Positions 3,801 to 64,000 of a stretch of DNA of 64,000 bases are shown piece by piece (position 1 is the first letter of the stretch; every line of letters starts with the position of its first letter). The DNA is from Acorus gramineus. Taxonomy: Eukaryota; Streptophyta; Magnoliopsida; Acorales; Acoraceae. The translations under genes and the position numbers were made by a program. The notes below the pieces were generated by a model, which made no database searches, was not told where the DNA came from, and saw only the letters and a list, made by a program, of their open reading frames with translations. Where the stretch lies: positions 31,175,080 to 31,239,079 of the forward strand of contig CM060849.1 in assembly GCA_030737835.1 (NCBI GenBank), written 5' to 3'.

Positions 3801-4181
3801 TAGCTGTGTTAGTGCATGATTTGGATCGGATCTTCAAGCGGTGTCTGTGCATGTAAGTTTCATCGATTCTTCCATGGGTGCGGTTACTCCGACCAACCAA
3901 GTTATTAGTGGCATCACCTTTTTAAACCCCCCACCTCGCAATTTAGCTTTCACCAACCCCACATCACAATAAATACACTACCAATGGAATCCCAACCCCA
4001 GCATCTACCGATTTTCAAATGAACTCCTCTCTCTTCCCCCACTTTTCACTCCTTTTTTGGTCTTCTCCTTCACATCCGGTGCTGCGAAGTCTGTCGTGAG
4101 TCGATGAGTCCGTTAAGAGTCCACTGTGAGTCCGTTGTGAGCCCACCGTGACAGTGATCCCCTACCACAGTCTGTCTTATT
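3801..4181. other. Non-coding interval, promoter/UTR-like composition
   Basis: No open frame of size occurs here. The interval is richer in C than its neighbours, and 4090-4160 contains short degenerate direct repeats of a GAGTCCGTTGTGAG type. It could be a remnant promoter or 5' UTR, but no gene follows that supports this. Confidence 0.35.
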
Positions 4182-5075
4182 ATAAGTTAGGGTTTTCATA
4201 GGAATTTAGGATATTTTTAGAGAAATTTATGGTTTGGGTCTTTTTTTTTTGTTGGATTGCATGTTATAATTATGATTGCATTTGTTTGGTCTAAAACCCT
4301 TATATTACAAGTATTGAGATTTTTTTTATATTCAAAGTTAGGGTTTTGATAGAAAGCTATGGTATTGTTAGAGCAATGTATGGTTTAATCTCTTTTTTTT
4401 ATTATTGAAACCCATGTTTGTGATTCTATTGGTTTGGTTTAAACCCTTATATTATAGATAATGTGTGTTTTTTTAAGTGTAAGTTAAGGTTTTGATAGGA
4501 ATTTAGGATATTTTTAGAGAAATGTATGGTTTGGTTTTTTTTTGTGTGTTGGATTGCAGGTTATGATTGTGATTGCATTTATTTGGTTTAAAACCCTTAG
4601 ATTACAAGTATTGAGGTTTTTTTTAATTCAAAGTTAGAGTTTTGATAGGAAGATAAGGTATTGTCAGAGCAATGTATTGTTTGAGTTCTAATTTTTTTTT
4701 TTTTTTGGATTGAAAGGCATGTTTTATGATTCCATTTGTTTGGTTTAAACCCTTATATTACAAGTAATGTGCGTTTTTTTAATTGTAAGTTAGGTTTTTG
4801 ATAGGAATTTAGTATATTTTTAGAGAAATGTATGGTTTGGGGTTTTTGTTTTGTTAGATTGCAAGCTATGATTGTGATTGCATTTATTTGGTTTAAAACC
4901 CTTAGATTACCGGTATTGGGATTTTTTTTTAATCCAAAATTTGGGTTTTGATAGAAAGATAGGGTATTGTTAGAGCAATGTATGGTTTGAGCTCTATTTT
5001 TTTTTTTTTTTGGATTGAAAGCGATGTTTTATGATTCCATTTTAGTTTAAACCCTTATATTACATATATTCAGTT
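4182..5075. repeat. Tandem array of three ~302-bp units, each a dimer of ~150-bp subunits
   Basis: Units begin at about 4182, 4483 and 4785 with AAGTTAGGGTTTTxATAGGA-like sequence. Each contains two related halves: one with TTTTTAGAGAAATGTATGGT and one with TTGTTAGAGCAATGTATGGT. Each half then has a T-run, a GATTGCATxTTATGATT-like block and AAACCCTTATATTACA. Alternating half-types make this a small higher-order repeat about 700 bp upstream of the caleosin gene. Confidence 0.75.
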
Positions 5076-11855: not shown

Positions 11856-13066
11856 TCAAGGGAAAGGAGCCCTGGTCTTCATCTCCGTCCTCACCACATC
11901 AACAGCAAACCCCTTCCCATGCTGCTTCCAGTAATCCGCCTCCGGGTTTATCCACTCCGGCTCCCCGATTTCTACCCTCGATTTCCCGATCTCCTCGCTC
12001 GATATGCCATACTTATCGTCCCTCGCTTTCACCATATCCGGTCTCACCACGCCCGCGTTCACCCCCTGTGGCGACATCATCAGCGCCGGAGCCCCAAGCG
12101 GGAGCCGATCGCCTCGGTCCACCTGCCACGTGCACCAGAACTTCCCATACGTCCTCGCCAGGTTCTCGAGCTCGGTCTTCTGTATCATCTCGGGGACTCG
12201 GGGGTTCACCCAGAGACCAGTTTTCACCTCGTACGCGTGCGAGTGCCACAGCTTCTGCTCCTCCGCGGGCAGGCCTTCGAATAGCCTATCTGATATTATG
12301 TACTCCACACCTGTCGTATACAAAGAAAAACTCACTCTAGCTGTGTCGTCCTTCATAACAAACCATTCGTACAAGAAGGCCGACACTTGCTACGCTTTCT
12401 CATGTAAGATTCAATTCCCTTTACATTCACTCTCTAACCAGACATATAATTAATTAAAATTTATTGTATCATAGACTATTTTTTTTAATAACCGCCCGCT
12501 GTTATAATAAAAAAAATTTACAATCTAAATATTATTTTACATGTCTCATTAAAAATTTAGTTAGATGAACAAAAACTTTTTTTTACGTTTATTAAAAATA
12601 AGTTTATTCAATTCTATATGCTTTTTATCAAAGGATAAAGTATTTTTTAAAGATTGAATATAAATTTTTTTTTTTCATTTTAAAACATACTTGAGAATCA
12701 TAACAGAATGGGTATATGATTTTAAAAAAAAATTAAAAATACAAATACAATGGACTGCATTTGGGGCTGACCAATGAGGCGGGCGGTGGGGGAGTCGGAG
12801 TCGTAGACGGGGCACTGGAGGAAGTCCTGGCTGAGGCGGGAGAGGTAGTGGTGGGTCTCGATCTGGCGTGAGAGGTCGTGCGCGTATAAAGCGAAGGTGC
12901 ACACGTGCTGCTGGAGCTGCTTCACCGGTTTCATCGACTGGATCATTTGTGCCCCCATGTCCAACACATGTGACCCGACCGTGGTCACCTTTCCCTGGAG
13001 AGGTTCCGCTGGACCGCCTCCGCCGTAGCAAGGCGTCGCTCCCGGACACTGATCGCTTGAGGCCAT
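11856..13066 (-). CDS. OBAP1: Oil body-associated protein (OBAP1-like, DUF1264), two exons, 249 aa
   Basis: OBAPs are plant seed proteins that associate with lipid droplets and are needed for normal oil-body size; their biochemical activity is unknown. My model is exon 1 13066-12772 and exon 2 12310-11856 (minus strand), with a phase-1 join giving ...TARLI-G-VEYIISD. Family signatures read in order: KVTTVGSHVLDMGAQMIQSM (about 26-45), HHYLSRLSQDFLQCPVYDSD, VEYIISDRLFEGLPAEEQKL, WHSHAYEVKTGLWVNPRVPE and KFWCTWQVDRGDRLPLGAPA. The length agrees with the family (about 240-250 aa). Coding GC is much higher than the surroundings. The 461-bp intron is AT-rich. The gene converges on the caleosin gene. 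OBAP1 versus OBAP2 cannot be settled without a tree. Confidence 0.92.
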
Positions 13067-16748: not shown

Positions 16749-19700
16749 TCAAGCCTTGTTGCTCCCACTTTGAACCTGTGGAGGCCTGTACTTGTACCAC
16801 CTAGCCCAGAACAGGTAATTCAAGAAGTTGATGAAGCTGACAATAGCAAGTAACCAATAGAACAGATTCAAATGGTTCCTGTTCAAATTGTTCCCAGCCA
16901 ACCATCCCCCACTCGCAGTGAGGTTTTTAGTGGCCTTGTTCACCACCTCCACAATGATGGTGCTCAAGAAGTACCCGAGAGCGATGGAGCACCACAAGAA
17001 CGCCGTCGCGAATGACTTCAGAGACAACGGAGACTCCGAATAGAAGAACTCGAGCAACCCAACATAGGTAAACATTTCTGCTATTCCAAATATGAAGAAC
17101 TGGAAGGACAGCCAGAACGTGCTGATGGGGAGGTGCTGGTCGACCGGGATGGCGTCAAGCATGCCGTGAGTGGCAGCGACGTCCTTCCTCTTCACCTCCA
17201 TGAGCGCGGCTGTAGACATGGAGATGCACGAGAGGACGAGACCGACACCGATGCGTTGGAGGTGTGTGATGCCTGTAGGTAAAAGCATCTCGATTATCTT
17301 AAAAAAATCCGTGTCCAAAAATTTAAAAAATTATTTGATATCCAAAGATTCGTATTCATGTCTCAAATAAAATATTTGTATTTGAAATATTTCAAATCGA
17401 ATACGGTTACAATGGTATCCTATTAGAAAAATATTCGAATCCAAAATTTATTTTATATTATTATTTATTATATATATTTTTTTAGAATTAGTATGAGTTT
17501 TTATTATTTATTTTAAACCATGTAATATACTTATAAATTTTTATAATTTTATGTTTATATTAGATAATTATTAGATGTTTTACATATTTTTAGATATTTT
17601 GAAAAATTATCTGAATCTGAATTCAACTTTTCTAATCGAATACATATGCTTAATGTAAATATCCGTGAGATATCGAATACATATATTTTTTTGGATATAT
17701 AAAACACGGATATGGTTCTATTCATATCCGTTCTATTGACAAACTTACCTGTAGAACGTCCAGTGATCCTCCTCGCGAAGGGGACAAAGACGCGATCATA
17801 GAGGGGGATGATGGGGATCATGAATAAGATGGGAATGATGGGTAGGGACGCGGGGGGTATGTGGAAGTGATGGGAGATGCGGGTGTCCATGGTGACGGCC
17901 TGCTGGATGGAAAATGTCTGGAGCTGGGCCAGGCATGTGCTCATGATGATTGTGCTGAAGAAGATGGGGAGCATTCCCAGGATGATCTTGGCCTTCTCCA
18001 CTTGTGTCACTGTGCACAACTTCCATGGGGAGATTGGGTCTTGGAGGATTGGTGTTGTTTGGATTGCTGCCTTATCTAGGAACCTGTGGTTTGTATATTG
18101 AAGAGCTACTGAAAATTAAAATGATTTATCAATGGATTGAAATGAAGTTTGTTGGGATAGTGTTGTGACCTGAAAATGTCTCTATGTGGAAGAAATTCTA
18201 CTTCCGTTGCAGATTCTTTATCTTTCACAGTTTCGTAGAGCTCCTCTGAATGCTCAGGGTGGTGAAATTTTCGGTTTCGAAAAGATGCCACATAGACCTA
18301 CATACATTTTCAATAACAAGTAATTAAATAAATAGAAGCGAATTTGCCAGAGATGCGCTTCGGGCATACGTTCTAGATAAATAAATTGAGGTTCATACAT
18401 ATCATATCCTAAAAAAACATTTATCAGACATGAAGGATATATTAGATATCCAGTAAAGTGCAACATCCTATCAGTTTTAATTAATCACAAATTCTTAACA
18501 TATGAGATTGATCACATCTGAGAGGAGTCTAACACGACTACTAACGATATTGCATTTAACTTAAATTAAACTATTGGCGTTGTTATACATAATATCTTTT
18601 ATAACCTTAAACGTAATCTCATATGTCTTATTAGTCATCCAATTACGTATATATATCTCTTTAATTTTTTTTATATTTATTAAAAATAAGTTCATTTGAT
18701 TTAAAATGGAATGATGTGTTTGTTTTTTAAAAATTAAAACATGCAAAAACTATATGTGAGACTGCAAGTAGAGCTGTCACTAACATTATCCTTTACGAAC
18801 CTGAAGGAGTTCTGTGATTGGATTAGTAGCTTGAACGACGTGCATCCGGTACCTCGGAATCCCAGCTATGAAGATGAGCCCACCTAAGAAGATGGCCACG
18901 GACGAGACACCAAAACCCCAGTCCCACCCCACATCACTTTGAATGTACACCACAAACACCAAGCTCAAAGCAGCTCCAATGTATGCGCTCAGTAAAACCC
19001 AGTTGAAGTAGCTCGACCTCTGTAAGGCCTCCCGTTCGTTCTTCTCATCGAATTGATCCGCACCATGTGGAGGGACCCCGGCTTTGATCCCAGCAGCGCC
19101 AAGCGCCACCAAGTACAGAGAAAAGAAGAGGAACAACGCGTTACAGCCTCCGACTCTCTCACAGTGCGATTTGGGATCAAAGATGTTGCATGGGGGAGGC
19201 TTAAGGTGTGGGATGTGTGCTTGCACTGTTAGCATTGCAAATCCCTACATATACATATAACACCAGATTCATTTTGTTCTACTATATATACTAATTGAAT
19301 GATGTGATATGAATTTGTACGGATACATTTTGTGGAATACGCACCAAGAATTCGAAGAAAACGGATATGACAATGACTTTGCAACGGCCAATGTGTGAGT
19401 CAGCAACATAGGCTATGAGAATTGAGAGGATGTAGCAGACGCCCATAAAGTTTGTGAGCTGGTTGGAGGCGTCCGCAATGTTATAATGCATCAAGCCGTT
19501 GAAATATGTGACAAGGTTCACTGCTGGTGCCGTCGTCGCCAAGTTTTCAAATGCGAACAGAGCTGGATCACAGGTATATCATGTATAAAAGGAACAAGGT
19601 GAAGTTAAAATCAATTAGTTTTCGATCAATCAAGATTATAATTTATGGTTGCGCAACATACAAGCACTCGTGTGTGTTCCTTTATATGGGACATAAGAAC

Positions 19701-49196: not shown

Positions 49197-50010
49197 GCTC
49201 TATGTGCCTCTTCGCCATTAACAGCTCTTCCGAAGTGAGATTTTGATTCCTTGATAAAAATTTATTTCATCATTAGTATTAATAGATTAATGAACGCAAT
49301 AAGACAAATAATCCTATATAAAAAAACATACTGTGGAGGCTCCTTGCACGTCTTCGCCTTTGAGGCCTTTTCCGAATAAACATTTGGATTCCTTGATCAG
49401 ATTTGATTTCGTTAGTATTAATAGATTAAAGAACACAATGAGATAAATAATCCCATTGAAAATACATACTTTGGAGGCGCATTGCGTTTCTTCTCCTTTA
49501 AGGCCTTTTCCAAAGAAACATTTGGATTCCTTGATCAGATTTGATTTCGTTAGTATTAATAGATTAATGAACACAATAAGACAAATAATCTCATAGAAAA
49601 TACATACTCTGTAGGCGCATTGTGTTTCTTCGCCATTAACACCTCTTCCAAAGAAGCATTTTGATTCCTTGATCAGATGATTTGATTTCGTTAGTATTAA
49701 TAGATTAATGAACACATTAAGACAAATAATCCCATAGAAAATACATACTCAGGAGGCTCCTTGTGTTTCTTCACCATTAAGGCCTTTTCCGAAGACACAT
49801 TTCGATTCCTTGATCAGATTTGATTTTGTTAGTATTAACAAATTAATGAACACATTAAGACAAATAATCCCATAGAAAATACATACTCTCGAGACTCCTT
49901 GCGTTTCTTCGCCATTACCGCCTCTTCTGAAGAAACATTTTGATTCCTTCATCAGATTTGATTTGGTTAGTCTCAATAGATTAATGAACACATAAAACAA
50001 ATAATCCCAT
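49197..50010 (-). repeat. Tandem array of six ~138-bp exon-intron units (ESK repeats)
   Basis: On the minus strand, six exons start after an AAG acceptor at 49946, 49808, 49667, 49529, 49391 and 49249 (spacing 138, 141, 138, 138, 142). Each is about 60 bp, phase 0, and encodes a 20-residue unit close to ESKCFFGKGLKGEETQCASK. Each ends at a GTATGTATTTTC donor followed by a ~78-bp intron with TTCATTAATCTATTAATACT. The last unit (ESKSHFGRAVNGEEAHRA) is cut by the junction with copia leader. Skipping or including such symmetric exons would keep the frame. Confidence 0.75.
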
Positions 50011-50400
50011 AAAAATCAGATATCAAAATGTAATCTCATTTAGCTTTCAAGAAAAGACATCTCTAATAAGGAATGCAAATATAAATGGTATCACATAATA
50101 GATCATAAGCCAGAAAACCTACTTTGTAAGAAAGTATACACAAATTGAAATATGTAAAAGAAAAAAAAAAGGTTCTTGACTCAATCTACTCAAGAACAGA
50201 AATTATGAGAAAACAAAAAGATTATTATAACACAGACCAAACTCAACATCATAATTTAAGAACAGAACAATTTATTTAAGAACACAAAAATTTCCCATGC
50301 GATTTATTTTCTTTCCATCATAAACTAAAACCATATAGGATACAAAACTATAATAGGCAATATGCATTTCAGAGATTTAAATGTGTTGTTTCTCTAACAG

Positions 50401-51542
50401 TCATCATTCAGTTGACTGTTTCAAATTTATTGATCTGTCTGGTCAGTTTTTTTTTTTTACGTGTTTTTTTCTTCTCTTTTACCTTGTTCCGAAGGACTTC
50501 AATCTTTCTTTCCAATCCTTCGTGTTCGATTGCTCATGCCTGAATGAGCTTTTTTTCTTTAGGGTGTAGTCTGTAGAAAAAGAATGAGCATTAGCTATTG
50601 TTAACATACATTATTAACACACACCAATATAATCACATACCTCCATGATCATCAGTCGGGCGAGCTTTTTTTGACGTGTTTTCTCTTCTCTTTTTATCTC
50701 ATTCTGCAGGACTTCAATCTTTTCTTCCAATCCTTCATATTCGATTGCCCATGCCTGCATGAGCTTTTTTTCTTTAGGGCGTTGTCTGTAGGAAATCTTG
50801 AAGGTTAGTTATTGTGTATATATATTTAGTAATACTTAAATATAATAACGTACCTAAATTTCAATTTGTGCCTCGAATTTCTTAATAGACTTTTGACTCG
50901 ATCTTTGTTGATCATCAGAGTGCTCCGTTTCTCCGTTAATGCAGACAGTAATTTTTCTGTTTTGTACAGACTCGATCTTAGTTCTTGAACAACAGTTACA
51001 TCATCCAATTTCATTTTTCTTTTGATCGCTTCGTTTATTAGCTGATCGCGTAGCCTGCCTCCAATCCTGTGAGGGATCCGAATAGCAGCATTGCCATGTT
51101 TAATACGATTGAAATCTTCGATTTCAGTAATCTCGTGCACTGGTTTTTGTTGTCTTCTCTCACGCTCCACCTAATTCATGAATGAGAGTTCAAGTAATCA
51201 ACAAGTCAAACTTTAGTGAAAGCTTGTATGCAGTTAGAATATATAAATAGTTAAATGGATTAAGATGATCAAACATTTTACAACTAAACAAAACTAAAAA
51301 TAGATTCTACATATTAATTTTCTAACAATTAAATCCCTGTTTTAATTATTTACCTTGCAAGCCAATGAGCAGAATTGATTGGGGGGGTCACTTTTCTCAC
51401 ATTTCTCATATCTGATGTTGTCATGGACTGAAGGTAATTTGCAGGTATTCTTAATGTGTACAACATCATCGTTTCTCGACTTAAATGTCTGGAAAAAGCA
51501 CAAACATAGAAAAATGTTGAATCATGTAACAATCCAGTCAAT
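50401..51542 (-). repeat. Left arm of a 1.14-kb near-identical inverted repeat
   Basis: Reverse complement of 53009-54150 with only scattered differences (for example GTAGTC vs GCGTAG near the last exon, and Ala vs Thr in RIPxNYLQ). Near-identity including introns means a recent duplication. Confidence 0.9.
50559..51533 (-). CDS. Zinc-finger/coiled-coil gene fragment, left-arm copy
   Basis: Minus-strand exons: one ending NFDDVKNAFIDWI at 51533, then 51488-51354, 51170-50854, 50785-50641 and a last short one 50570-50559 (stop). Exon 51488-51354 encodes a Cys-rich segment CEKSDPPNQFCSLACK, which resembles the C-terminal FCSLxCKV part of PLATZ zinc-binding proteins. The following VERERRQQKPVHEITEIEDF, RIGGRLRDQLINEAIKRKMK and ELRSSLYKTEKLLSALTEKR are basic and coiled-coil. 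The next exon is EKKLMQAWAIEYEGLEEKIE. The 5' part of the gene is not joined to it here. The PLATZ link is tentative. Confidence 0.5.
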
Positions 51543-51738
51543 AAAAGCATTCTTCACGTCATCGAAATTTATGTTGAAGATCGAAATGCCAAAATTGTGA
51601 TAAATTTTGGAGATCAAAATGTAATTTCAGCTAGGTTTCAAGAAAAGACATTTGTAATAAAGAATTCAAAGATTAATGACCTAACAAAATAGATCATAAG
51701 CTAGGTAGCTTAATTGGTTCAAAACCCTATTTTGCAAG

Positions 51739-51873: not shown

Positions 51874-51985
51874 GCCCTCCTCAAACTCACGGTGGATCAT
51901 ACAAAGTGAGTTTGCAAAGAAGGAACTGAAATCGAGGAATTGGATGTGACTTCGTAAAGAAATCAGCAAGCTGCTCTTCTTTGTG
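51874..51985 (-). mobile_element. Copia polypurine tract and RNase H C-terminus
   Basis: On the minus strand EHKEEQLADFFTKSHPIPRF is the usual end of copia RNase H, followed by a stop and a TTTGAGGAGGGC tract abutting the LTR. It is cut at about 51985, where plus-strand integrase sequence begins. Confidence 0.8.
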
Positions 51986-53008
51986 TTCATCTTATCAATA
52001 TCACCCCCTCCTCTGTCCTCTCCGGTATGACTCCTCATGAGCGTCTTTATTCTTCTCACCCTGATTATAGCAGACTTCGCACATTTGGATGTACGTGTTT
52101 TGTGCTTCTCCCTCCTCATCAACGCACCAAGTTGGCCGCTCGGTCAATAAAGTGTGTATTCTTAGGGATTAGCTTCAAACACAAGGATTATCGCTGCTAT
52201 GATCCTGTTGGAGATCGATTTTGGATCGCTCGTCATGTGTCCTTTGTCGAGGATGTTCCCTATTTTTCTTCTTCACCCACTCCGTCCTCTCCTCCTGTGC
52301 ATTCTCCTATTCAGGTCTCTTCTATTACGTCTCTTCCTTTTCCTGGCCTACCTGTTGCACTAGAGTCTGTTCCTACCCCTGCGTCTCAACCTGACATTCC
52401 TGCAGATAACCCACCCTCTCCTCCCAGTGTGTCACCTATTGCCCCTACTGAAGATACTTCCACTGGTCCTCCGACTCCCACGCCCGACGCGCCTCCTCCT
52501 GCCGTGGATCCTCATCTTTTGCCTCGTTATCCTCACCGTGCGCGTCACCCCCCTTCCCGCTTCAGTTACAACTCGGGGCCACCAGACCAGTTTGGTTTTG
52601 CATCTGTCAGTACCTACTCTCCACAATTTCAGGCCTATCTCACAGCTATACATGCCCACCGTGAGCCCCGATCTTATCAAGAGGCAGTCGAGTACCCTGA
52701 GTGGCAGCAGGCCATGGCTGAGGAGTTTCAGGCGTTTGAGCAGACACAGACCTGGGATGTTGTTCCCCTTCCGAATGGTGTTACCCCTATCAGCTGTAAG
52801 TGGATTTTCAAGATCAAACATCGCCCTGATGGTTCCATTGAACGCCATAAGGCTCGTCTTGTTTCCAGAGGTTTCACTCAGGAGTATGGCATTGACTATG
52901 AGGAGACTTCTGCTCCTGTTACTCAGATGACTACTGTTCGCACCCTTCTCGCCGTTGCTGCTGTTCGTCGCTGGCCTCTCTTTCAGATGGACGTGAAGAA
53001 TGCTTTTC
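51986..53008 (+). mobile_element. Copia integrase C-terminus and RT N-terminus, plus strand
   Basis: The frame reads HLINITPSSVLSGMTPHERL, then YSRLRTFGCTCFVLLPPHQR and KCVFLGISFKHKDYRCYDP (integrase C-terminal region). A Pro/Ser-rich linker follows, then RT: QAMAEEFQAFEQTQTWDVVP, CKWIFKIKHRPDGSIERHKA, RLVSRGFTQEYGIDYEETSA and QMDVKNAFL. It stops there: at 53009 the sequence switches to host gene. The coding frame is intact, so this copy was young when it broke. Confidence 0.9.
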
Positions 53009-54150
53009 TTGACTGGATTGTTACATGATTCAACATTTTTCTATGTTTGTGCTTTTTCCAGACATTTAAGTCGAGAAACGATGATGTTGTACACATTAAG
53101 AATACCTACAAATTACCTTCAGTCCATGACAACATCAGATATGAGAAATGTGAGAAAAGTGACCCCCCCAATCAATTCTGCTCATTGGCTTGCAAGGTAA
53201 ATAATTAAAACAGGGATTTAATTGTTAGAAAATTAATATGTAGAATCTATTTTTAGTTTTGTTTAGTTGTAAAATGTTTGATCATCTTAATCCATTTAAC
53301 TATTTATATATTCTAACTGCATACAAGCTTTCACTAAAGTTTGACTTGTTGATTACTTGAACTCTCATTCATGAATTAGGTGGAGCGTGAGAGAAGACAA
53401 CAAAAACCAGTGCACGAGATTACTGAAATCGAAGATTTCAATCGTATTAAACATGGCAATGCTGCTATTCGGATCCCTCACAGGATTGGAGGCAGGCTAC
53501 GCGATCAGCTAATAAACGAAGCGATCAAAAGAAAAATGAAATTGGATGATGTAACTGTTGTTCAAGAACTAAGATCGAGTCTGTACAAAACAGAAAAATT
53601 ACTGTCTGCATTAACGGAGAAACGGAGCACTCTGATGATCAACAAAGATCGAGTCAAAAGTCTATTAAGAAATTCGAGGCACAAATTGAAATTTAGGTAC
53701 GTTATTATATTTAAGTATTACTAAATATATATACACAATAACTAACCTTCAAGATTTCCTACAGACAACGCCCTAAAGAAAAAAAGCTCATGCAGGCATG
53801 GGCAATCGAATATGAAGGATTGGAAGAAAAGATTGAAGTCCTGCAGAATGAGATAAAAAGAGAAGAGAAAACACGTCAAAAAAAGCTCGCCCGACTGATG
53901 ATCATGGAGGTATGTGATTATATTGGTGTGTGTTAATAATGTATGTTAACAATAGCTAATGCTCATTCTTTTTCTACAGACTACGCCCTAAAGAAAAAAA
54001 GCTCATTCAGGCATGAGCAATCGAACATGAAGGATTGGGAAGAAAGATTGAAGTCCTTCGGAACAAGGTAAAAGAGAAGAAAAAAACACGTAAAAAAAAA
54101 AAAACTGACCAGACAGATCAATAAATTTGAAACAGTCAACTGAATGATGA
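53009..54150 (+). repeat. Right arm of the 1.14-kb inverted repeat
   Basis: Starts at the RT/host junction and ends at CTGAATGATGA (54150), where the two arms diverge. It carries the same exons as the left arm in plus orientation. Confidence 0.9.
53062..53991 (+). CDS. Zinc-finger/coiled-coil gene fragment, right-arm copy
   Basis: Exons 53062-53196 (45 codons, TFKSRNDDVVHIKNT... to FCSLACK), 53380-53696 (VERERRQQKP...), 53765-53909 (RQRPKEKKLMQAW...KKLARLMIME) and 53980-53991 (TTP-stop) join in phase with GT-AG introns. Upstream it is fused to copia RT in place of its own exon. A further exon-like copy of RPKEKKLxQA after 53980 would be in another frame. The amino-terminal part is absent. 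It may be transcribed from copia or neighbouring sequence, but this is unknown. Confidence 0.5.
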
Positions 54151-56290: not shown

Positions 56291-56672
56291 TATGACAAAT
56301 AAAACAGTGCTGCTACCCGGGCCCCAAATATTAGGCCCCATTGCTGAGCCCCAATAGGTGGCATAATCCTATTGGTCCCTTGTTTGACTATTTCTAACTA
56401 CCAAAAGGCCAATTACATAACTACCCTTACCATGATTTTAAAAAATCGTTCCAATAAGATCATACCGCCATTAATCCTCGTTACGAAATCCCAAAAATCG
56501 CGGGGTCATTAAACGTTCCACTCATATTTAATTTTTTCAAAAAAACCTAACGAACTAGGGTTTCTAATTACGGCGTTCACAGTATCCTGAAAATCGGCAA
56601 ATCCAGGCGAACGAAGGCGAAACGGCATTCCGGATTGATCTGATCTTCTTCCCCGAAAAGAAATAGTCGACA

Positions 56673-59600
56673 ATGGGGAAAAACAAAGGTTACAGTTCTT
56701 GCAGATCGTCCATACCTACCCGTTTTTTTTTTTTGTGCGATATAATCAAGAAACTGTCCCAGTCTTCAACTTTTCCCTTCCGTGCATCTGAATTTTTTTT
56801 ATTAATACTGTGTATCTTAAATTCGGCAGTGTATCTAGATTAATTTTTTGAACTTCACGCAAATGTTGAATCCAATCAAGATACCGTCTATGATCACAAA
56901 TTTTTCCTTCCGTAAATCACACATTTGACATTTTACAAAAGTTTTATGTTATCCTGTGCACACCATTCATATTCAGCATCGAATGATGCATTTAGGATGT
57001 AATATCAGATACTTGTATCTGAAAATATCATGGCACTGTGCAGTGGTTTAATGTCACAGTGCAATGGTTTATATCCTCCCTTAAAACTATGTATCTGAAA
57101 TTCGGTAGTGTATCTTAATTTGAGAAATCACACATTTGACATTTTACAAAAGTTTTATGTTATCCTGTGCACACCATTCATATTCAGCATCGAATGATGC
57201 ATTTAGGATGTAATATCAGATACTTGTATCTGAAAATATCATGGCACTGTGCAGTGGTTTAATGTCACAGTGCAATGGTTTATATCCTCCCTTAAAACTA
57301 TGTATCTGAAATTCGGTAGTGTATCTTAATTTGAGAAATCACACATTTGACATTTTACAAAAGTTTTATGTTATCATGTGCACACCATTCATATTCAGCA
57401 TCGAATGATGCATTTAGGATGTAATTTCAGATACTTGTATCTCAAAAGCATGGCACTGTGCAGTGGTTTAATGTCACAGTGCATAGTTTATATCCTCCCT
57501 TAAATCTATGTATCTTAATTTGAGAAATCACACATTTGACATTTTACAAAAGTTTTATGTTATCATGTGCACACCATTCATATTCAGCATCGAATGATGC
57601 GTTTAGGATGTAATTTCAGATACTTGTATCTCAAAAGCATGGCACTGTGCAGTGGTTTAATGTCACAGTGCATAGTTTATATCCTCCCTTAAATCTATGT
57701 ATCTGAAATTCGGAAGTGTATCTTAATTTTAGAAATCACACATTTGACATTTTACAAAAGTTTTATGTTATCCTGTGCACACCATTCATATTCAGCATCG
57801 AATGATGCATTTAGGATGTAATATCAGATACTTGTATCTGAAAAATAATGGCACTGTGCAGTGGTTTATATCATTGCAATGGTTTATATCCTCCCTTAAA
57901 ACTATGTATCTGAAATTCGGCAGTGTATCTTAATTTGAGTAATCACACATTTGACATTTTACAAATATTTTTTGTTATCCTGTGCACACCATTCATATTC
58001 AGCATCGAATGATGCATTTAGCCTGTAATATCAGATACTTGTATCTGAAAAATAATGGCACTGTGCAGTGGTTTATTGTCACAGTGCAAATGGTTTATTT
58101 CCTCCCTTAATACTATGTATCTGAAATTAGGCATTGTATCTTAATTTGAGAAATCACACGTATGACATTTTACAAATTTGTTTTAGCAACTTGGAATTCA
58201 TGTAAGATACACCTGTATCTTAAAAAAAGTGTAAGACTATGACAGCATATTATGCAATTTTAAGTGTATTGATTAGTGATGGATTGTTCTGTATCTAAGA
58301 ATCAATATGTCTGTGTAATTCTGTAGTTCCAAAAGAAAGAGTTGCTGAACCCAGAAGAAACAAAGCGTACTATCCCCAATACCGATCTGCAATTCATAGA
58401 ATTTTTGAAACGTTCGCAACGATGAAGTTGAACAAAAAGCATTTGGACTTGCTACAGAGAACTCCATTTTGGAACCTATTCAAGTCCTTCATCGACAAAT
58501 CCTATGATTACAGCAAAACAAAGAAAAATGATGATGATGTATTGTCCATAATCCAGTCGTTTGACCACCAGTCTGACAGCTTCAACATTGGTGGAAAAAG
58601 AATAAAGGTCACAATAGATGAAGTGGATCTAATATTTGGGATACAATCAGGAAAAAAAAAATCGAAGGTAAATTTTTTAATGTAGTATATTCAATTGAAA
58701 TTTAAAGAATTTACTTATTATACTGTATCTTGAATTCTTGACATAATCTATCATTTTCAAACAGTTTCTTTGGGAGGTAAACCAGAGACATCTTTTGTAC
58801 AAAGAAGATTTCAAAATGTGAAGAGGCCGAATGCTCCAAAAGTGAAAGAACAGCTACTGATAGCATTCAAAGGCAAAACAAACACAGATTTTGAAGACTT
58901 CACAAAACTATGCTGCCTGTATCTGTTTGTGTGTCTTTTTTATACAAATAGTGGACAAACACTGGGCTGGAATTTTTTCAGTTATGTCGATGACATAAGC
59001 AAGATCAAAGATTATGCGTGGTCCACCTCAATATTGGAAACTCTCATGCAGTCTATAAAGAAGCATCCATCAACTCCATTAAGTGTCGCAGGATGTGTGT
59101 TGTTATTACCGGTGAGAAACCATCTAAATTAAACATTTTAACATTTAAAAGCAATTCCATGACATATTCACTAACCAAATGTTTTCATTTATGCAGTATT
59201 GGTTGTGTGAACACACACGCATAATTCAACCATCACATGCAAACAAATTTCCACGGCTTTTAAGATGGGATCTACGTGAGCTGCATAAAGCCATGGCAAA
59301 AACAAAAATCAAGAAAATTAAAAAAGATCAGGTACTTAGAATGTTTTTCCTTACTGCATGCAGTCCTCACATTATATACCTCATCAGATACATTTGTATG
59401 TTATATAAAAGATTATGTATGATCAGTGATATAACTCTATGTCTGATTAACATTTTTTGATACTGTTAATTTTATCTTTTAAGATACACATGTATCTTAA
59501 AATCTCTGGGTTTACATATGTATGTGATTGCATTTACTACTGTTGTGTCTTTACAAAAATTAAAATGTCTATTACATTACAATGAATCTTAACTTTTCAA

Positions 59601-62162
59601 CTCACCTTATTGATTTTTTGATAGAGGTGTATCTGAATAAGTGTTTTAGTATCTTCTGATTTTCTTTTTAAGATACATATGTATCTGAAAGACTAGCAAT
59701 GCATATATGACTATTGTAGGTAATGATTTCATATCTTCAGATTTTCTTTTTAAGATACATATGTATCTGAAAGACTAGCAATGCATATATGACTATTGTT
59801 TTAAAGAACTATGAAGTGCTACAGTATGATCACAAATAAATATTACCATTCTTCAAACACATTATCTCTTACAGCTCTAATTTAAACATTCACTATGTAT
59901 GTGTATAATATTATTCATTTAAGGTAGTTGTAGCTTAATGACCAAGATTTTAGGTTGATGTATCTTAATTGTAGATTGGATTTTATGTATAACTGATGAC
60001 TGATATTTAATGGCTGCTGCAGGTGATCATTGAGGAGCTCAGCTACAGTTTAAATGAATTAAAACAACTTGGCAATAGGACTCCTTCTAGGGCCCAATCA
60101 GAAACAGAAGATGATGAGGATGATGCTGAAACTCACACTGATTCTCTTCAAGACAATGAGGAGGAAACAGATGAAGATAATGAAAGAGATAGTGGAAATC
60201 AATCACCAGGGGATGATGAAGACCGTGAAAGTATGTTGGTTGAATTACAAAAAAGGATGGTAGAAATGGAGGAGGAAAATGTAAAACTGTTGCAAAAAGA
60301 CAAAGAGATGGAAAAACAAACTACTGAGTGGCGGGAGGGGTGCCAGAAGCTCACCTCAGAATTAGATAAAAAAGCCGATTACATCCAAAATTTGGAGGAC
60401 CGCGTTAAGCTACTGATAGAAAAAGATAAACTGAAAGATTCGGAAATTGAAGCAGAGAAAGAAGCTGCAAGGATGCTAAAGAAAAAAATTGATGAACAGC
60501 ATAAGCAGATTGAGGAATTCCAACTGGATGCCACAGTCCATAGCATCACACAACAAGTCAGTTTGGAAAAAGATAACGAATTCCTTCAAGCAGAGCTCAA
60601 AGAAAGGGATGAAATGATCGCTGATCTGCAGAAAACTAAAGGATCAAGCACTGAAAGTCCTCTTCAGATAGTTCCCTTACAAATCTGGTCGCCCATGCAT
60701 GGACCTGTGGACACCATCCAATATCAGACAATTGCTGTACAGAATAACAACAATCAATCTATGATTTCAAATATCAAAGCTGAACAGCGAAAGAGCACAA
60801 AGAACCCTGAGTTCAAATATACATTTGATTCATCGAACAAGGCTAGGGGTCGAAAGAGGAAAAACAGTGGGAGGGGTAACAAACAACCAGCGAAACCCAA
60901 AAAATTCAGATACAGCTTTCCCAAAACAGCTGTTGTCAAGCTCATGGACATTCAAGACTTGGAAAAACTGAAACACATTGTGACACTCACAGAAGGAAGG
61001 TAATGGACAAACTGTTAAAAATTAAAGCTTGCCTGATTTTATATTTGTATGCTATTGCTCAGTTGAAAAGTTTATCCATATATAGCTAATTTAAGATACA
61101 GCTGTATCTTAAAAATAAAGTATATTGCTGTTGTGATCAACAATCATGTGCTTTTTCATTTAATGCAGTGGAGCAATATGGGAAGGAAATTTTGGCGTGG
61201 TGCATTATGAAGACATGAGGGCAATTTCAGAAGAAGATGAAGTCCCAAGCAATGTATGTATCATCAGCTAAATATAGTGTAATGTAGTATATGAATCTGA
61301 GTTTTTTTTTTAAGATACAGCTGTATCTTAAGAAAAAATACAATTCAAAATGATTATCTAACTTTCTACAAAAACATTATAATTGCCTAGGTCATTGATG
61401 CATACACGGAGATTTTATATGCTGAGCAAGGAGACAAATCAATGGACGTTGGCTCATCTTATTTTGTATCTGCCAACATATCCCAGTCACTTTTAAATCA
61501 AAGCCAGGAACATTTGTTTGATGCCCTAGTGAACAAGAAGGTGGATCTCAACTTTCACAGATACATACACTTTCCACTCCACAACCATGGCCATTGGACG
61601 TTGGCGGTGTATGACGTTTCTGAAAACGAGTGGAGGCATTATAATTCACTCCTTCCAAATGTTGAAGCAGAAGATAACAGCCATTTACAATTAGTCTCAA
61701 AATTGGTAACATTTCATAAAAACCTTGCATAGTTTTACTAACTATCATATGATAATGAAAAGGTGTATGACACATATGTCTTTACTGTGTATTCTGGGAT
61801 TTATACAGAGGGATGAGTTTGAGAAACATTTCAGTGTCAACAAATGTGGGAAAATCATCTCAATGGCAGATGCACCACAGCAAGAACAAATGTCGTAAGT
61901 GAAATTCAATATAAATGCTCAACATTAAGTTTATTATCTGTATCATAATATAAATTGTTTTATTCCCAGGATGGATTGTGGTCCAGTCATCCTACACATC
62001 ATGAAACAATATGCTGCAAAAGAGGAAGTGACAACGCATACGATGGATAGAAAGAAGTGCAGACCAATTAGAGCACACATTATGCATAAATTTCTGAATG
62101 ACAAGCACCATACATATACAGATGAAGATCACATGGTCAGGCAGATGTACATGACGCCTTGA
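56673..62162 (+). CDS. ULP1-like cysteine protease (C48) of MULE type, nine exons, about 831 aa
   Basis: ULP1 proteases process or remove SUMO; for MULE-borne ULP-like proteins the substrate is unknown. Exons: 56673-56688, 58327-58667, 58765-59111, 59197-59331, 60023-60999, 61169-61253, 61391-61705, 61809-61894, 61970-62162. The N-terminal part (RIFETFATMKLNKKHL, LLQRTPFWNLF, VTIDEVDLIFGIQSG) resembles the DUF1985-type region preceding plant MULE ULP domains. Exon 5 has an acidic stretch, a long coiled coil (about 350-520) and a basic patch (RGRKRKN). The protease core has HNHGHWTLAVYDV (His ~702), then YNSL where a catalytic Asp (DSL) is usual, and MDCGPVILHIM (Cys ~772). Exons 2 and 3 do not join in phase: a ten-A run at 58652-58661 implies one base lost or gained, a true frameshift or a homopolymer error. 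All other joins are in phase. Confidence 0.82.
56920..58200. repeat. Six tandem ~200-bp units in intron 1 of the ULP gene
   Basis: CACATTTGACATTTTACAAA begins units at 56920, 57131, 57342, 57531, 57739 and 57946 (a seventh partial at 58157); spacing 211, 211, 189, 208, 207, 211. Each has CACACCATTCATATTCAGCA, GGCACTGTGCAGTGGTTTA and GTATCTGAAATTCGG. Units 1 and 2 are almost identical. Such subterminal arrays are typical of large MULEs; they may bind transposase or affect transcription. Confidence 0.9.
59620..59800. repeat. Direct repeat (80-bp spacing) in ULP intron 4
   Basis: AAGATACATATGTATCTGAA followed by AGACTAGCAATGCATATATG occurs at about 59670 and again at 59752, nearly identical. 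It contains one of the recurring GTATCT palindromes. Confidence 0.8.
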
Positions 62163-62479
62163 TCAGTAAAGGAATGATGTTTTTTCATGAAAAACAATTG
62201 GGGTCTAATTAAAATAGTTTTTGGTTGATTTTTGGATATGAAATTTTGTATTCAATGTATTGTTCAATTTTGATGTATAACTGATAGGTTTTGGTTCTGT
62301 GTTTAACATTGAATTTGATATAGTTATAGATGTATCTGAATTTGGTGGTGTATCTGACATTTGTAATAGACATCTGTATCTTAAGCGCAAATCAATGTCT
62401 TATATGTTTGTGGAATGTATGTTTATTGTGATGTCTATGTGAGACTGTTTATTAGGTGTTTATTGTGATGGAATGTAAA

Positions 62480-63300
62480 ATGTGTATCTTAACACTTGTA
62501 TAAATTGCAAAACAGTGGTGGTTTAAATTTGAATTTGATGTGATACAGTGATAGATGTATCTGAAATCTATTGTATCTTAAATTCGTATTAAACATCTAT
62601 CTGAATCACAAATCAAAGTAAGTTGTATGTGGAATGTAATTGCCTATTGTGAAGTGTATAAGGACTTTTTATTAGGTGTATCTTAATTCAAAATGAATCA
62701 TATAAGATTGGCTTCTTCTCCAGCATAGTAGATCATAATGGGTGATACCTGAAAACCTGTCAAATTACTATTATGATGTATCTTAAAGTGAATGTGTATC
62801 TTAAAACCTGTATAAATTGCAAAACAGTGGTGATTTAAATTTGAATTTGATGTGATACAGTGATAGATGTATCTGAATTCTATTGTATCTTAAATTCGTA
62901 TTAGACATCTATGTGAATCACATATCAATCAAGTTGTATGTGGAATGAATCATATAAGATTGGCTTCTTCTCCAGCATAGTAGATCATAATGGGTGCTAC
63001 CTGAAAAACTGTCATATTACTATTATGATGTATCTTAAAGTGAGATGTGTATCTTAAAACCTGTATGAATTGCAAAAACAGTGGTGATTTAAATTTGAAT
63101 TTGATGTGATACAGTGATGATGTATCTGAATTCTATTGTATCTTAAATTTGATGTGATACATCTATGTGAATCACATATAAGATTGGCTTCTTCTCCAGC
63201 ATAGTAGATCATAATGGGTGCTACCTGAAAACCTGTCATATTACTATTATGATGTATCTTAAAGTGAGATGTGTATCTTAAAACCTGTATAAGATGTGTT
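62480..63300. repeat. Three imperfect tandem units between the ULP and transposase genes
   Basis: AAAACAGTGGTGxTTTAAAT recurs at about 62509, 62821 and 63075. Each is followed by GATGTGATACAGTGAT, GTATCTGAATTCTATTGTAT and, in the last two, GATTGGCTTCTTCTCCAGCA. The GTATCTTAA/GTATCTGAA words are the same as in the intron array. It probably marks the intergenic 3' flanks of both MULE genes. Confidence 0.85.
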
Positions 63301-63486
63301 TGGTCAATGTAATGTGTATCTGCAAAAATGTAATCAGTGTATAAGATGGACTAAGTAAAACTCATAACAACAAACATAATGACAATCTCAAATGAATTCC
63401 ACAGACACATTGAAAAAACACATTATGACATCAAATGTGTAGTACAAAAAGAGGCCCTCTCCAGCCTTCTAAAAATTATTAGATCC

Positions 63487-64000
63487 TTAAGGTAATTTTG
63501 CTTTTGTATTCCTCGGCTTGTAAACCTTGGGTGCCTTCCTTCTTGATGGTGGTCGTCCTTTACTCCGAACTTTGTAAGGCGAGTGAACAATTGAATTTGG
63601 AATCTGCTCATCACCAACACTACAATCATTGTGATCAGTAACTTCTTTCGTTAAGTCATTATACAAAACATCAAGATGCTTTTTGCACAATTCGAACATT
63701 TCAGGAGAGACAACAGCAACATCAGCAATTGATATAAATTTAGAGTGCAAGTCATGGTGCCTCCACATTTGCTCATTTGACATGTTGTCCACATAACAGT
63801 TTTTCACATAATTGTGCATTCGTTTAATGCCCTTCTGCCAACGGTCAAGAATGTAGTTTTGTGAAACTTCCATCATGTTGATGTGTATCAGAACTTTCAT
63901 AGAATGTCTACACAAGATGCCCCTAAATTCAAAAAGACAGCATAGGCATTTAACCTCCTGCTTACCTTCATCAAAATGAACTTGGTACGCTATTTTTTTT
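63487..64000 (-). CDS. FAR1/MuDR-type transposase, C-terminal part (continues past window)
   Basis: The minus-strand frame from the window edge to the TAA at 63487 encodes a SWIM zinc finger, KCLCCLFEFRGILCRHSMKV, then VSQNYILDRWQKGIKR, the standard end of FAR1/FHY3-related and MuDR transposases. The basic tail SKGRPPSRRKAPKVYKPRN follows. An intron may lie just inside the window edge. The DDE core would be beyond 64000. It may be a transposase or a domesticated FRS gene, but the ULP neighbour favours a MULE transposase. Confidence 0.85.
   Translation of the reverse strand, partial: KKIAYQVHFDEGKQEVKCLCCLFEFRGILCRHSMKVLIHINMMEVSQNYILDRWQKGIKRMHNYVKNCYVDNMSNEQMWRHHDLHSKFISIADVAVVSPEMFELCKKHLDVLYNDLTKEVTDHNDCSVGDEQIPNSIVHSPYKVRSKGRPPSRRKAPKVYKPRNTKAKLP

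What the first reader, a model, noticed from the sequence alone, without database searches (positions are those of the whole stretch)
56300..64000. Large MULE pairing a ULP1-like protease with a FAR1/MuDR-type transposase
A nine-exon ULP-like gene, almost intact, converges on a SWIM-finger transposase gene. Repeated capture and retention of a SUMO-protease-like gene by MULEs is known (Kaonashi in Arabidopsis), but the role is unresolved. This copy looks nearly complete and may be recently active.
Basis: partly seen in the sequence, partly recalled or inferred. Interest (0 to 1): 0.75.

Follow-up and report, generated by a model that had tools for sequence, protein, structure and literature searches.

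The report
Plant transposon with likely anti-silencing gene
This looks like a plant jumping gene that carries, beside its transposase, a gene of the kind other plant transposons use to undo the host's silencing, and its non-coding DNA is packed with a private ten-letter tag that this protein probably reads.

Summary
A nine-exon gene (56673-62162, +) with a Ulp1/C48 domain (27.8 bits, cutoff 20.7) converges on a SWIM-finger transposase 3' end (63487-63999, -). Right end, TIR, TSD and DDE core lie past 64000 and were not testable.

The interpretation needs changing: this is probably not just a captured SUMO protease. The N-terminus matches plant mobile domain/DUF1985 near or below Pfam's cutoffs. 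The element's non-coding DNA is filled with TGTATCTKAA: 46 of 46 window copies lie in the element (0.64 expected), 45 non-coding. With repeat arrays collapsed 22 remain, against 0.05 in shuffles; ten palindromic pairs sit at fixed 10- or 12-bp offsets.

A private motif filling introns and intergenic DNA, partly in tandem arrays, is the anatomy of VANDAL/VANC anti-silencing in Arabidopsis, where Ulp1-carrying VANC genes (KIU) are already described. Best explanation: a VANC-type protein binds TGTATCTKAA and unsilences its own family. Binding and demethylation are inferred.

New member of a known kind; motif, palindromic pairs and the PMD/DUF1985 overlap are the new details. A frame break at an A10 tract weakens 'nearly complete'.

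The parts
56298..56672 (.). putative left end and 5' non-coding DNA of the element; left border not proven; no motif
   Evidence: sequence; 0 motif copies; no other match in the window
56673..56688 (+). exon 1 (short, least certain)
   Evidence: ATG, GT donor, phase fits exon 2
56689..58326 (+). intron 1 with 211-bp tandem array (56914-58176, 6.1 copies) and 17 motif copies
58327..58667 (+). exon 2; A10 tract at 58652-58661 where the frame to exon 3 breaks
58765..59111 (+). exon 3 (alternative in-frame start 58788); PMD/DUF1985-like stretch together with exons 2 and 4
59197..59331 (+). exon 4
59332..60022 (+). intron 4, 8 motif copies including three palindromic pairs (59480, 59669, 59751)
60023..60999 (+). 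exon 5: acidic stretch, coiled coil, basic stretch; holds the single motif copy in CDS (60905, - strand)
   Evidence: heptad power peak
61000..61168 (+). intron 5, one palindromic motif pair (61092)
61169..61253 (+). exon 6
   Evidence: sequence and phase
61254..61390 (+). intron 6, one palindromic motif pair (61311)
61391..61705 (+). exon 7: Ulp1-like domain, catalytic His (HGHW), Asn at the Asp position
61809..61894 (+). exon 8: Ulp1-like domain, Gln of PQQ
61970..62162 (+). exon 9: catalytic Cys (DCG), stop at 62160-62162
62163..63486 (.). convergent intergenic region with diverged repeats (about 62479-63290) and 16 motif copies
63487..63999 (-). 3' end of transposase-type gene with SWIM zinc finger, runs off the window
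56811..63281 (.). span of the 46 TGTATCTKAA copies

Best explanation
The region is part of one plant Mutator-like element of the VANDAL/KIU kind, cut by the window's end. The ULP-like gene encodes a VANC-type anti-silencing factor: a PMD/DUF1985-like N-terminus, a coiled coil, a basic stretch and a Ulp1-like C-terminus. The protein binds TGTATCTKAA in the element's own introns and intergenic DNA, probably as a coiled-coil dimer on the palindromic sites and as a cluster on the direct repeats. Bound protein causes loss of silencing marks on its own family only, so that the transposase gene can be expressed. Shown here: gene model, domain matches, the motif, its confinement to the element's non-coding DNA within this window, and the fixed palindromic spacing. 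Inferred: that this protein binds the motif, dimerises, removes methylation, and that the Ulp1 domain contributes.
For: TGTATCTKAA: 46 matches in 64 kb, mean 0.64 and at most 7 in 100 shuffles, all inside 56811-63281. GTATCTTA is the most enriched 8-mer of the element against the rest of the window, score 119.7; best in 7 control bins 20.0, these leaving out 8-mers of fewer than 3 letters. 45 of 46 non-coding, binomial P 3.9e-9. Non-coding: 45 vs mean 0.08 in 300 dinucleotide shuffles; arrays collapsed: 22 vs 0.05. 12, 11 or 5 flank-distinct contexts at thresholds of 10, 9 or 8 of 12 shared flank bases. Ten palindromic pairs, six at 12 bp and four at 10 bp, none in 300 shuffles. No copy in the first 513 bp of the putative element. 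N-terminus PMD E 1e-8 and DUF1985 E 4.5e-5 over the same stretch; C-terminus C48 E 2.8e-6. Heptad power in exon 5 (87.5 at period 3.5, 9.2 at 3.6, peptide residues 64-147). Precedent: VANC21 binds a 9-base motif dense in introns, intergenic and terminal non-coding DNA of its own family, often within tandem repeats; VANC proteins carry DUF1985 (PMC5735166, parts 1-3 of 6). KIU = Ulp1-carrying VANC (PMC13317346, passages). VANDAL group: SWIM, PMD and/or DUF in half the members (PMC6446971, passages).
Against: No binding, methylation or expression data. DUF1985 is below Pfam's cutoff (23.9 and 22.8 vs 35.1 bits); PMD passes only with the broken junction bridged by X (35.2 vs 34.9) and not with the alternative acceptor (33.0). 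The motifs of VANC21 and VANC6 are absent from the element: expected for another family, but no positive link. VANC21 motifs are described as arrayed in the same orientation; here many are palindromic. Inside the arrays the motif is only weakly more conserved by substitution: intron 1 2/38 vs 25/173 columns, P 0.096; intergenic 0/40 vs 17/213, P 0.048; counting gaps as variation, intron 1 shows no excess conservation (12/38 vs 37/174, P 0.94). At the loosest flank threshold only 5 contexts remain. Phasing at 10.5 bp is weak (mean cosine 0.25 over 51 non-independent distances). No other copy of the element was seen, the motif was not compared with the rest of the genome, and the frame break may disable this copy.
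Confidence: 0.75

Rival explanations
1. The motif is a binding site of the element's transposase or of a host factor used for transposition or expression, and the ULP gene is a passenger.
For: Dense short motifs bound by transposon proteins are known in other elements (recalled). The motif occurs next to the transposase gene's 3' end (up to 63281).
Against: The copies are internal: none in the first 513 bp of the putative element, most in introns 1 and 4 and the convergent intergenic region. The right end was not seen. VANC-type elements show this layout with a non-transposase binder (PMC5735166).
Confidence: 0.1
2. An ordinary captured SUMO protease gene; the motif spread by neutral tandem duplication of intron and intergenic repeats.
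For: Two tandem arrays hold many of the 46 copies, substitution conservation within arrays is weak, His and Cys of the protease are kept.
Against: 22 copies remain after collapsing arrays vs 0.05 in shuffles; palindromic pairs with one spacing occur in introns 1, 4, 5 and 6; the gene also has a PMD/DUF1985-like N-terminus.
Confidence: 0.08
3. Two unrelated neighbouring genes, not one element.
For: Right end, TIR and TSD not seen; the transposase gene itself shows no motif in the 513 bp visible.
Against: The ULP-opposite-to-transposase pair is a published MULE arrangement (PMC2528002, passages); motif copies run from intron 1 to 206 bp from the transposase stop and nowhere else in 64 kb.
Confidence: 0.05
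4. The intronic palindromes act as RNA hairpins (splicing or small-RNA source), not as DNA sites.
For: Five of the six 12-bp-offset palindromes, all that were folded, fold better than shuffles (z -2.9 to -5.5).
Against: Any palindrome folds so; most copies are direct repeats on one strand, 40 of 45 non-coding copies on +.
Confidence: 0.02

Closest known systems
Kaonashi/KIU non-TIR MULEs of Arabidopsis, Ulp1-carrying VANC genes (PMC13317346 and PMC2528002, passages seen; Hoen 2006 and Sasaki 2022 not read)
   Same: Ulp1/C48 domain in a separate gene on the strand opposite the transposase; motif-filled non-coding DNA
   Different: Host not identified here; motif differs from the two I could check; a third coding gene, described for KIU elements, is not seen in the part inside the window
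VANDAL21/VANC21 and VANDAL6/VANC6 (PMC5735166, parts 1-3 of 6 read)
   Same: Short private motif dense in introns and intergenic DNA, often in tandem repeats; two motif types differing at one base (here T or G at K)
   Different: TGTATCTKAA instead of YAGTATTAY or AGTTGTCC/AGTTGTAC (0 copies of these in the element); many palindromic pairs; Ulp1-like C-terminus rather than DUF287
PMD-bearing plant MULEs (PMC5418596 and PMC6446971, passages seen)
   Same: Plant mobile domain in a MULE, in several groups antisense to a SWIM transposase; Ikeda et al. speculated on anti-silencing use
   Different: Ikeda et al. describe fusions with the transposase; here the PMD-like stretch is in the Ulp1-bearing gene and overlaps a DUF1985 match
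En/Spm TnpA (recalled, no call)
   Same: Element-encoded protein that binds many short motifs and counteracts methylation
   Different: CACTA element with subterminal motifs

Membership tests
MULE (Mutator-like element) | MuDR-type transposase with DDE core and SWIM finger | tested here: inconclusive
   SWIM 26.1 bits, above cutoff; DDE core would lie beyond 64000
MULE (Mutator-like element) | two ends flanked by a 9-bp TSD (TIRs may be degenerate) | not testable with these tools
   right end outside the window; own-genome search unanswered
VANC anti-silencing protein | DUF1985 domain | tested here: inconclusive
   E 4.5e-5 and 9.4e-5 over profile positions 15-140 of 141, but 23.9 and 22.8 bits against a cutoff of 35.1
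VANC anti-silencing protein | dense, family-private motif mainly in the element's non-coding DNA, often in tandem repeats | tested here: met
   46 of 46 window copies in the element, 45 non-coding; two arrays. Privacy tested only within this 64-kb window
VANC anti-silencing protein | binds its motif and causes hypomethylation of its family | not testable with these tools
   needs binding and bisulfite data
KIU / Kaonashi Ulp1-carrying gene | Ulp1 (C48) domain, strand opposite the transposase | tested here: met
   27.8 bits vs cutoff 20.7; convergent genes
Active Ulp1/SENP SUMO protease | His-Asp-Cys triad and oxyanion Gln | tested here: inconclusive
   In the alignment to SENP1 (E 0.038) His and Cys are kept, a PQQ Gln is present with a one-residue offset, and Asn stands at the Asp position
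Plant mobile domain (PF10536) | Pfam gathering score of 34.9 bits | tested here: inconclusive
   35.2 bits with X at the broken junction, 33.0 with the alternative acceptor

The most novel reading that the evidence does not exclude
The N-terminal domain of VANC proteins (DUF1985) is a divergent plant mobile domain, kin of the host silencing factors MAIN and MAIL1. In this element it acts with a coiled coil as a dimer that reads TGTATCTKAA palindromes, and the tethered Ulp1 domain removes SUMO from silencing factors at those sites: anti-silencing by a relative of the host's own silencing domain plus local desumoylation.
Probability: 0.2. Interest if true: 0.8.

Novelty: new member of a known kind. 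Interest (0 to 1): 0.52.

Why it matters
Sequence-specific anti-silencing by transposons has been worked out in Arabidopsis; how widely it reaches, what reads the motif, and what the Ulp1 domain does remain open (the review PMC13317346 calls the Ulp1 function unknown; passages). This element supplies, in one piece of DNA, a candidate reader and its likely site, so binding and the role of the Ulp1 domain become directly testable. The palindromic pairs suggest a dimeric reader, and the overlap of PMD and DUF1985 matches suggests a tie between the transposon's anti-silencing domain and host silencing proteins.

Tried and rejected
Rejected or set aside: transposase-site, neutral-repeat, two-neighbour and RNA-hairpin readings (see rivals). 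Known VANC motifs looked for and not found in the element: YAGTATTAY 0 (4 elsewhere in the window), AGTTGTCC 0 (0 elsewhere), AGTTGTAC 0 (2 elsewhere). Selection on the motif within arrays: weak or none. Helical phasing: weak. Rfam: no family at gathering score in the window; no tRNA (ARAGORN). A scan of viral contigs with the transposase end found no relative. PDB by sequence: nothing for the transposase end at E 1; for the N-terminal part six matches, none better than E 0.48. NCBIfam: no match near its cutoffs. Paper searches used 8 of 10. The motif strings occur in 112 held papers, of which 15 were listed, none about VANDAL by title; so absence of the motif from print is not established, and Sasaki 2022, the likeliest place, is not held. 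'plant mobile domain' with 'DUF1985': 0 held papers. 'VANDAL', 'VANC' and 'palindrom': 7 held papers, one on MULEs, the rest unrelated by title; PMC5735166 has no 'palindrom' or 'dimer' in its main text. PMC7156037: no occurrence of the six terms sought.

Full report
What is there. On the + strand nine exons with GT-AG borders run from 56673 to a stop at 62160-62162. All phases join except at exon 2/3, where the frame breaks at an A10 tract (58652-58661); an alternative acceptor with the exon starting at 58788 keeps one frame of 823 residues. Whether the break is real, an assembly slip or bypassed by splicing cannot be told here. On the - strand 63487-63999 is the 3' end of a gene with a SWIM zinc finger (26.1 bits, cutoff 19.6).

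Domains. The C-terminal part matches Peptidase_C48 (27.8 bits, cutoff 20.7). Against solved structures the best sequence match is SENP1 at E 0.038; in that alignment the catalytic His and Cys are kept and Asn stands where SENP1 has Asp. Cys-His-Asn triads work in papain-type proteases (recalled), so this does not show inactivity. The N-terminal part matches plant mobile domain (35.2 bits with X at the broken junction, 33.0 with the alternative acceptor; cutoff 34.9) and DUF1985 (23.9 and 22.8; cutoff 35.1) over the same stretch. Exon 5 encodes an acidic stretch, a strong heptad signal (power 87.5 at period 3.5 against 9.2 at 3.6 for peptide residues 64-147) and a basic stretch.

The motif. TGTATCTKAA occurs 46 times in the window, all between 56811 and 63281; 100 shuffles give a mean of 0.64 and at most 7. 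An unbiased count of 8-mers puts GTATCTTA first (score 119.7; best of seven control bins 20.0). Of the 46, 45 are non-coding (40 on +, 5 on -) and one lies in exon 5 on -. By segment: intron 1 has 17, intron 4 has 8, introns 5 and 6 have 2 each, the convergent intergenic region 16; the 5' 375 bp and introns 2, 3, 7 and 8 have none. One-mismatch forms number 15 in the element and 19 in the other 56 kb; the shorter core GTATCTKA occurs twice outside.

Duplication does not explain it all. Intron 1 carries a 211-bp array (6.1 copies) and the intergenic region diverged repeats. Keeping one unit of each leaves 22 copies in 3,069 non-coding bases against 0.05 in 300 shuffles. Flank comparison gives 12, 11 or 5 separate contexts by threshold. 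Palindromic pairs: six with starts 12 bp apart (introns 1, 4 three times, 5 and 6; two of those in intron 4 are a local duplicate) and four with 10 bp apart (units of the intron 1 array); 300 shuffles give none. Results against: motif columns inside the arrays are at best weakly conserved (P 0.096 and 0.048 by substitutions; P 0.94 in intron 1 with gaps counted), and phasing near 10.5 bp is weak.

What it most likely is. In Arabidopsis, VANC21 binds a nine-base motif dense in the introns, intergenic and terminal non-coding DNA of its own VANDAL family, often within tandem repeats; VANC6 uses other motifs; VANC proteins carry DUF1985 (PMC5735166, parts 1-3 of 6 read). A review states that Ulp1-carrying VANC genes are the KIU genes and that these elements too are unsilenced through their own motifs (PMC13317346, passages). 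VANDALs have SWIM transposases and PMD and/or DUF in half the members; other plant MULE groups have PMD antisense to the transposase (PMC6446971, passages). KI-MULEs carry ULP in reverse orientation to mudrA (PMC2528002, passages). Gene order, domains and motif layout here fit this kind. The step from layout to mechanism is inference.

Mechanism. Proposed: the protein dimerises by its coiled coil, reads the motif, and removes silencing along the element; what follows binding is unknown even for VANC21 (discussion of PMC5735166). The Ulp1 domain could free silencing factors from SUMO; this is the least supported step. The absence of the motif from the first 513 bp of the putative element argues against a transposase-end site, but the right end was not seen.

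Novelty. The kind is known. New here, as far as I could check: the motif TGTATCTKAA, the palindromic pairs, and one protein stretch that matches both PMD and DUF1985. No held paper has 'plant mobile domain' with 'DUF1985'. The motif's absence from print is not established: 15 of 112 papers with the strings were listed and Sasaki 2022 is not held. Ikeda et al. already speculated that PMDs taken up by MULEs serve anti-silencing (PMC5418596, passages).

Limits. No second copy, no genome search, no structure model, host not identified, left border unproven.

Noticed in passing
50401-51560 and 52990-54150: A 1161-bp inverted pair, 99.5% identical, around a truncated Copia-type pol ORF 51958-53025 (SH3 and RVT_2 domains); each arm holds the same 114-residue ORF of no firm family.
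   Followed up: partly
49209-50016: Tandem array of a 138-bp unit, 5.8 copies, close to the inverted pair.
   Followed up: no
4179-5068: Tandem array of a 306-bp unit, 3.0 copies.
   Followed up: no
16752-19244 (-): ORFs of a probable peptide/nitrate transporter gene; PTR2 match for 16752-17330, the other ORFs not scanned.
   Followed up: partly
11859-12389 (-): ORF with a strong DUF1264 match (151.6 bits), probably a host gene.
   Followed up: no
58652-58661: A10 tract at the end of exon 2, the longest A/T run found in the exons by the scan and the place of the frame break.
   Followed up: partly
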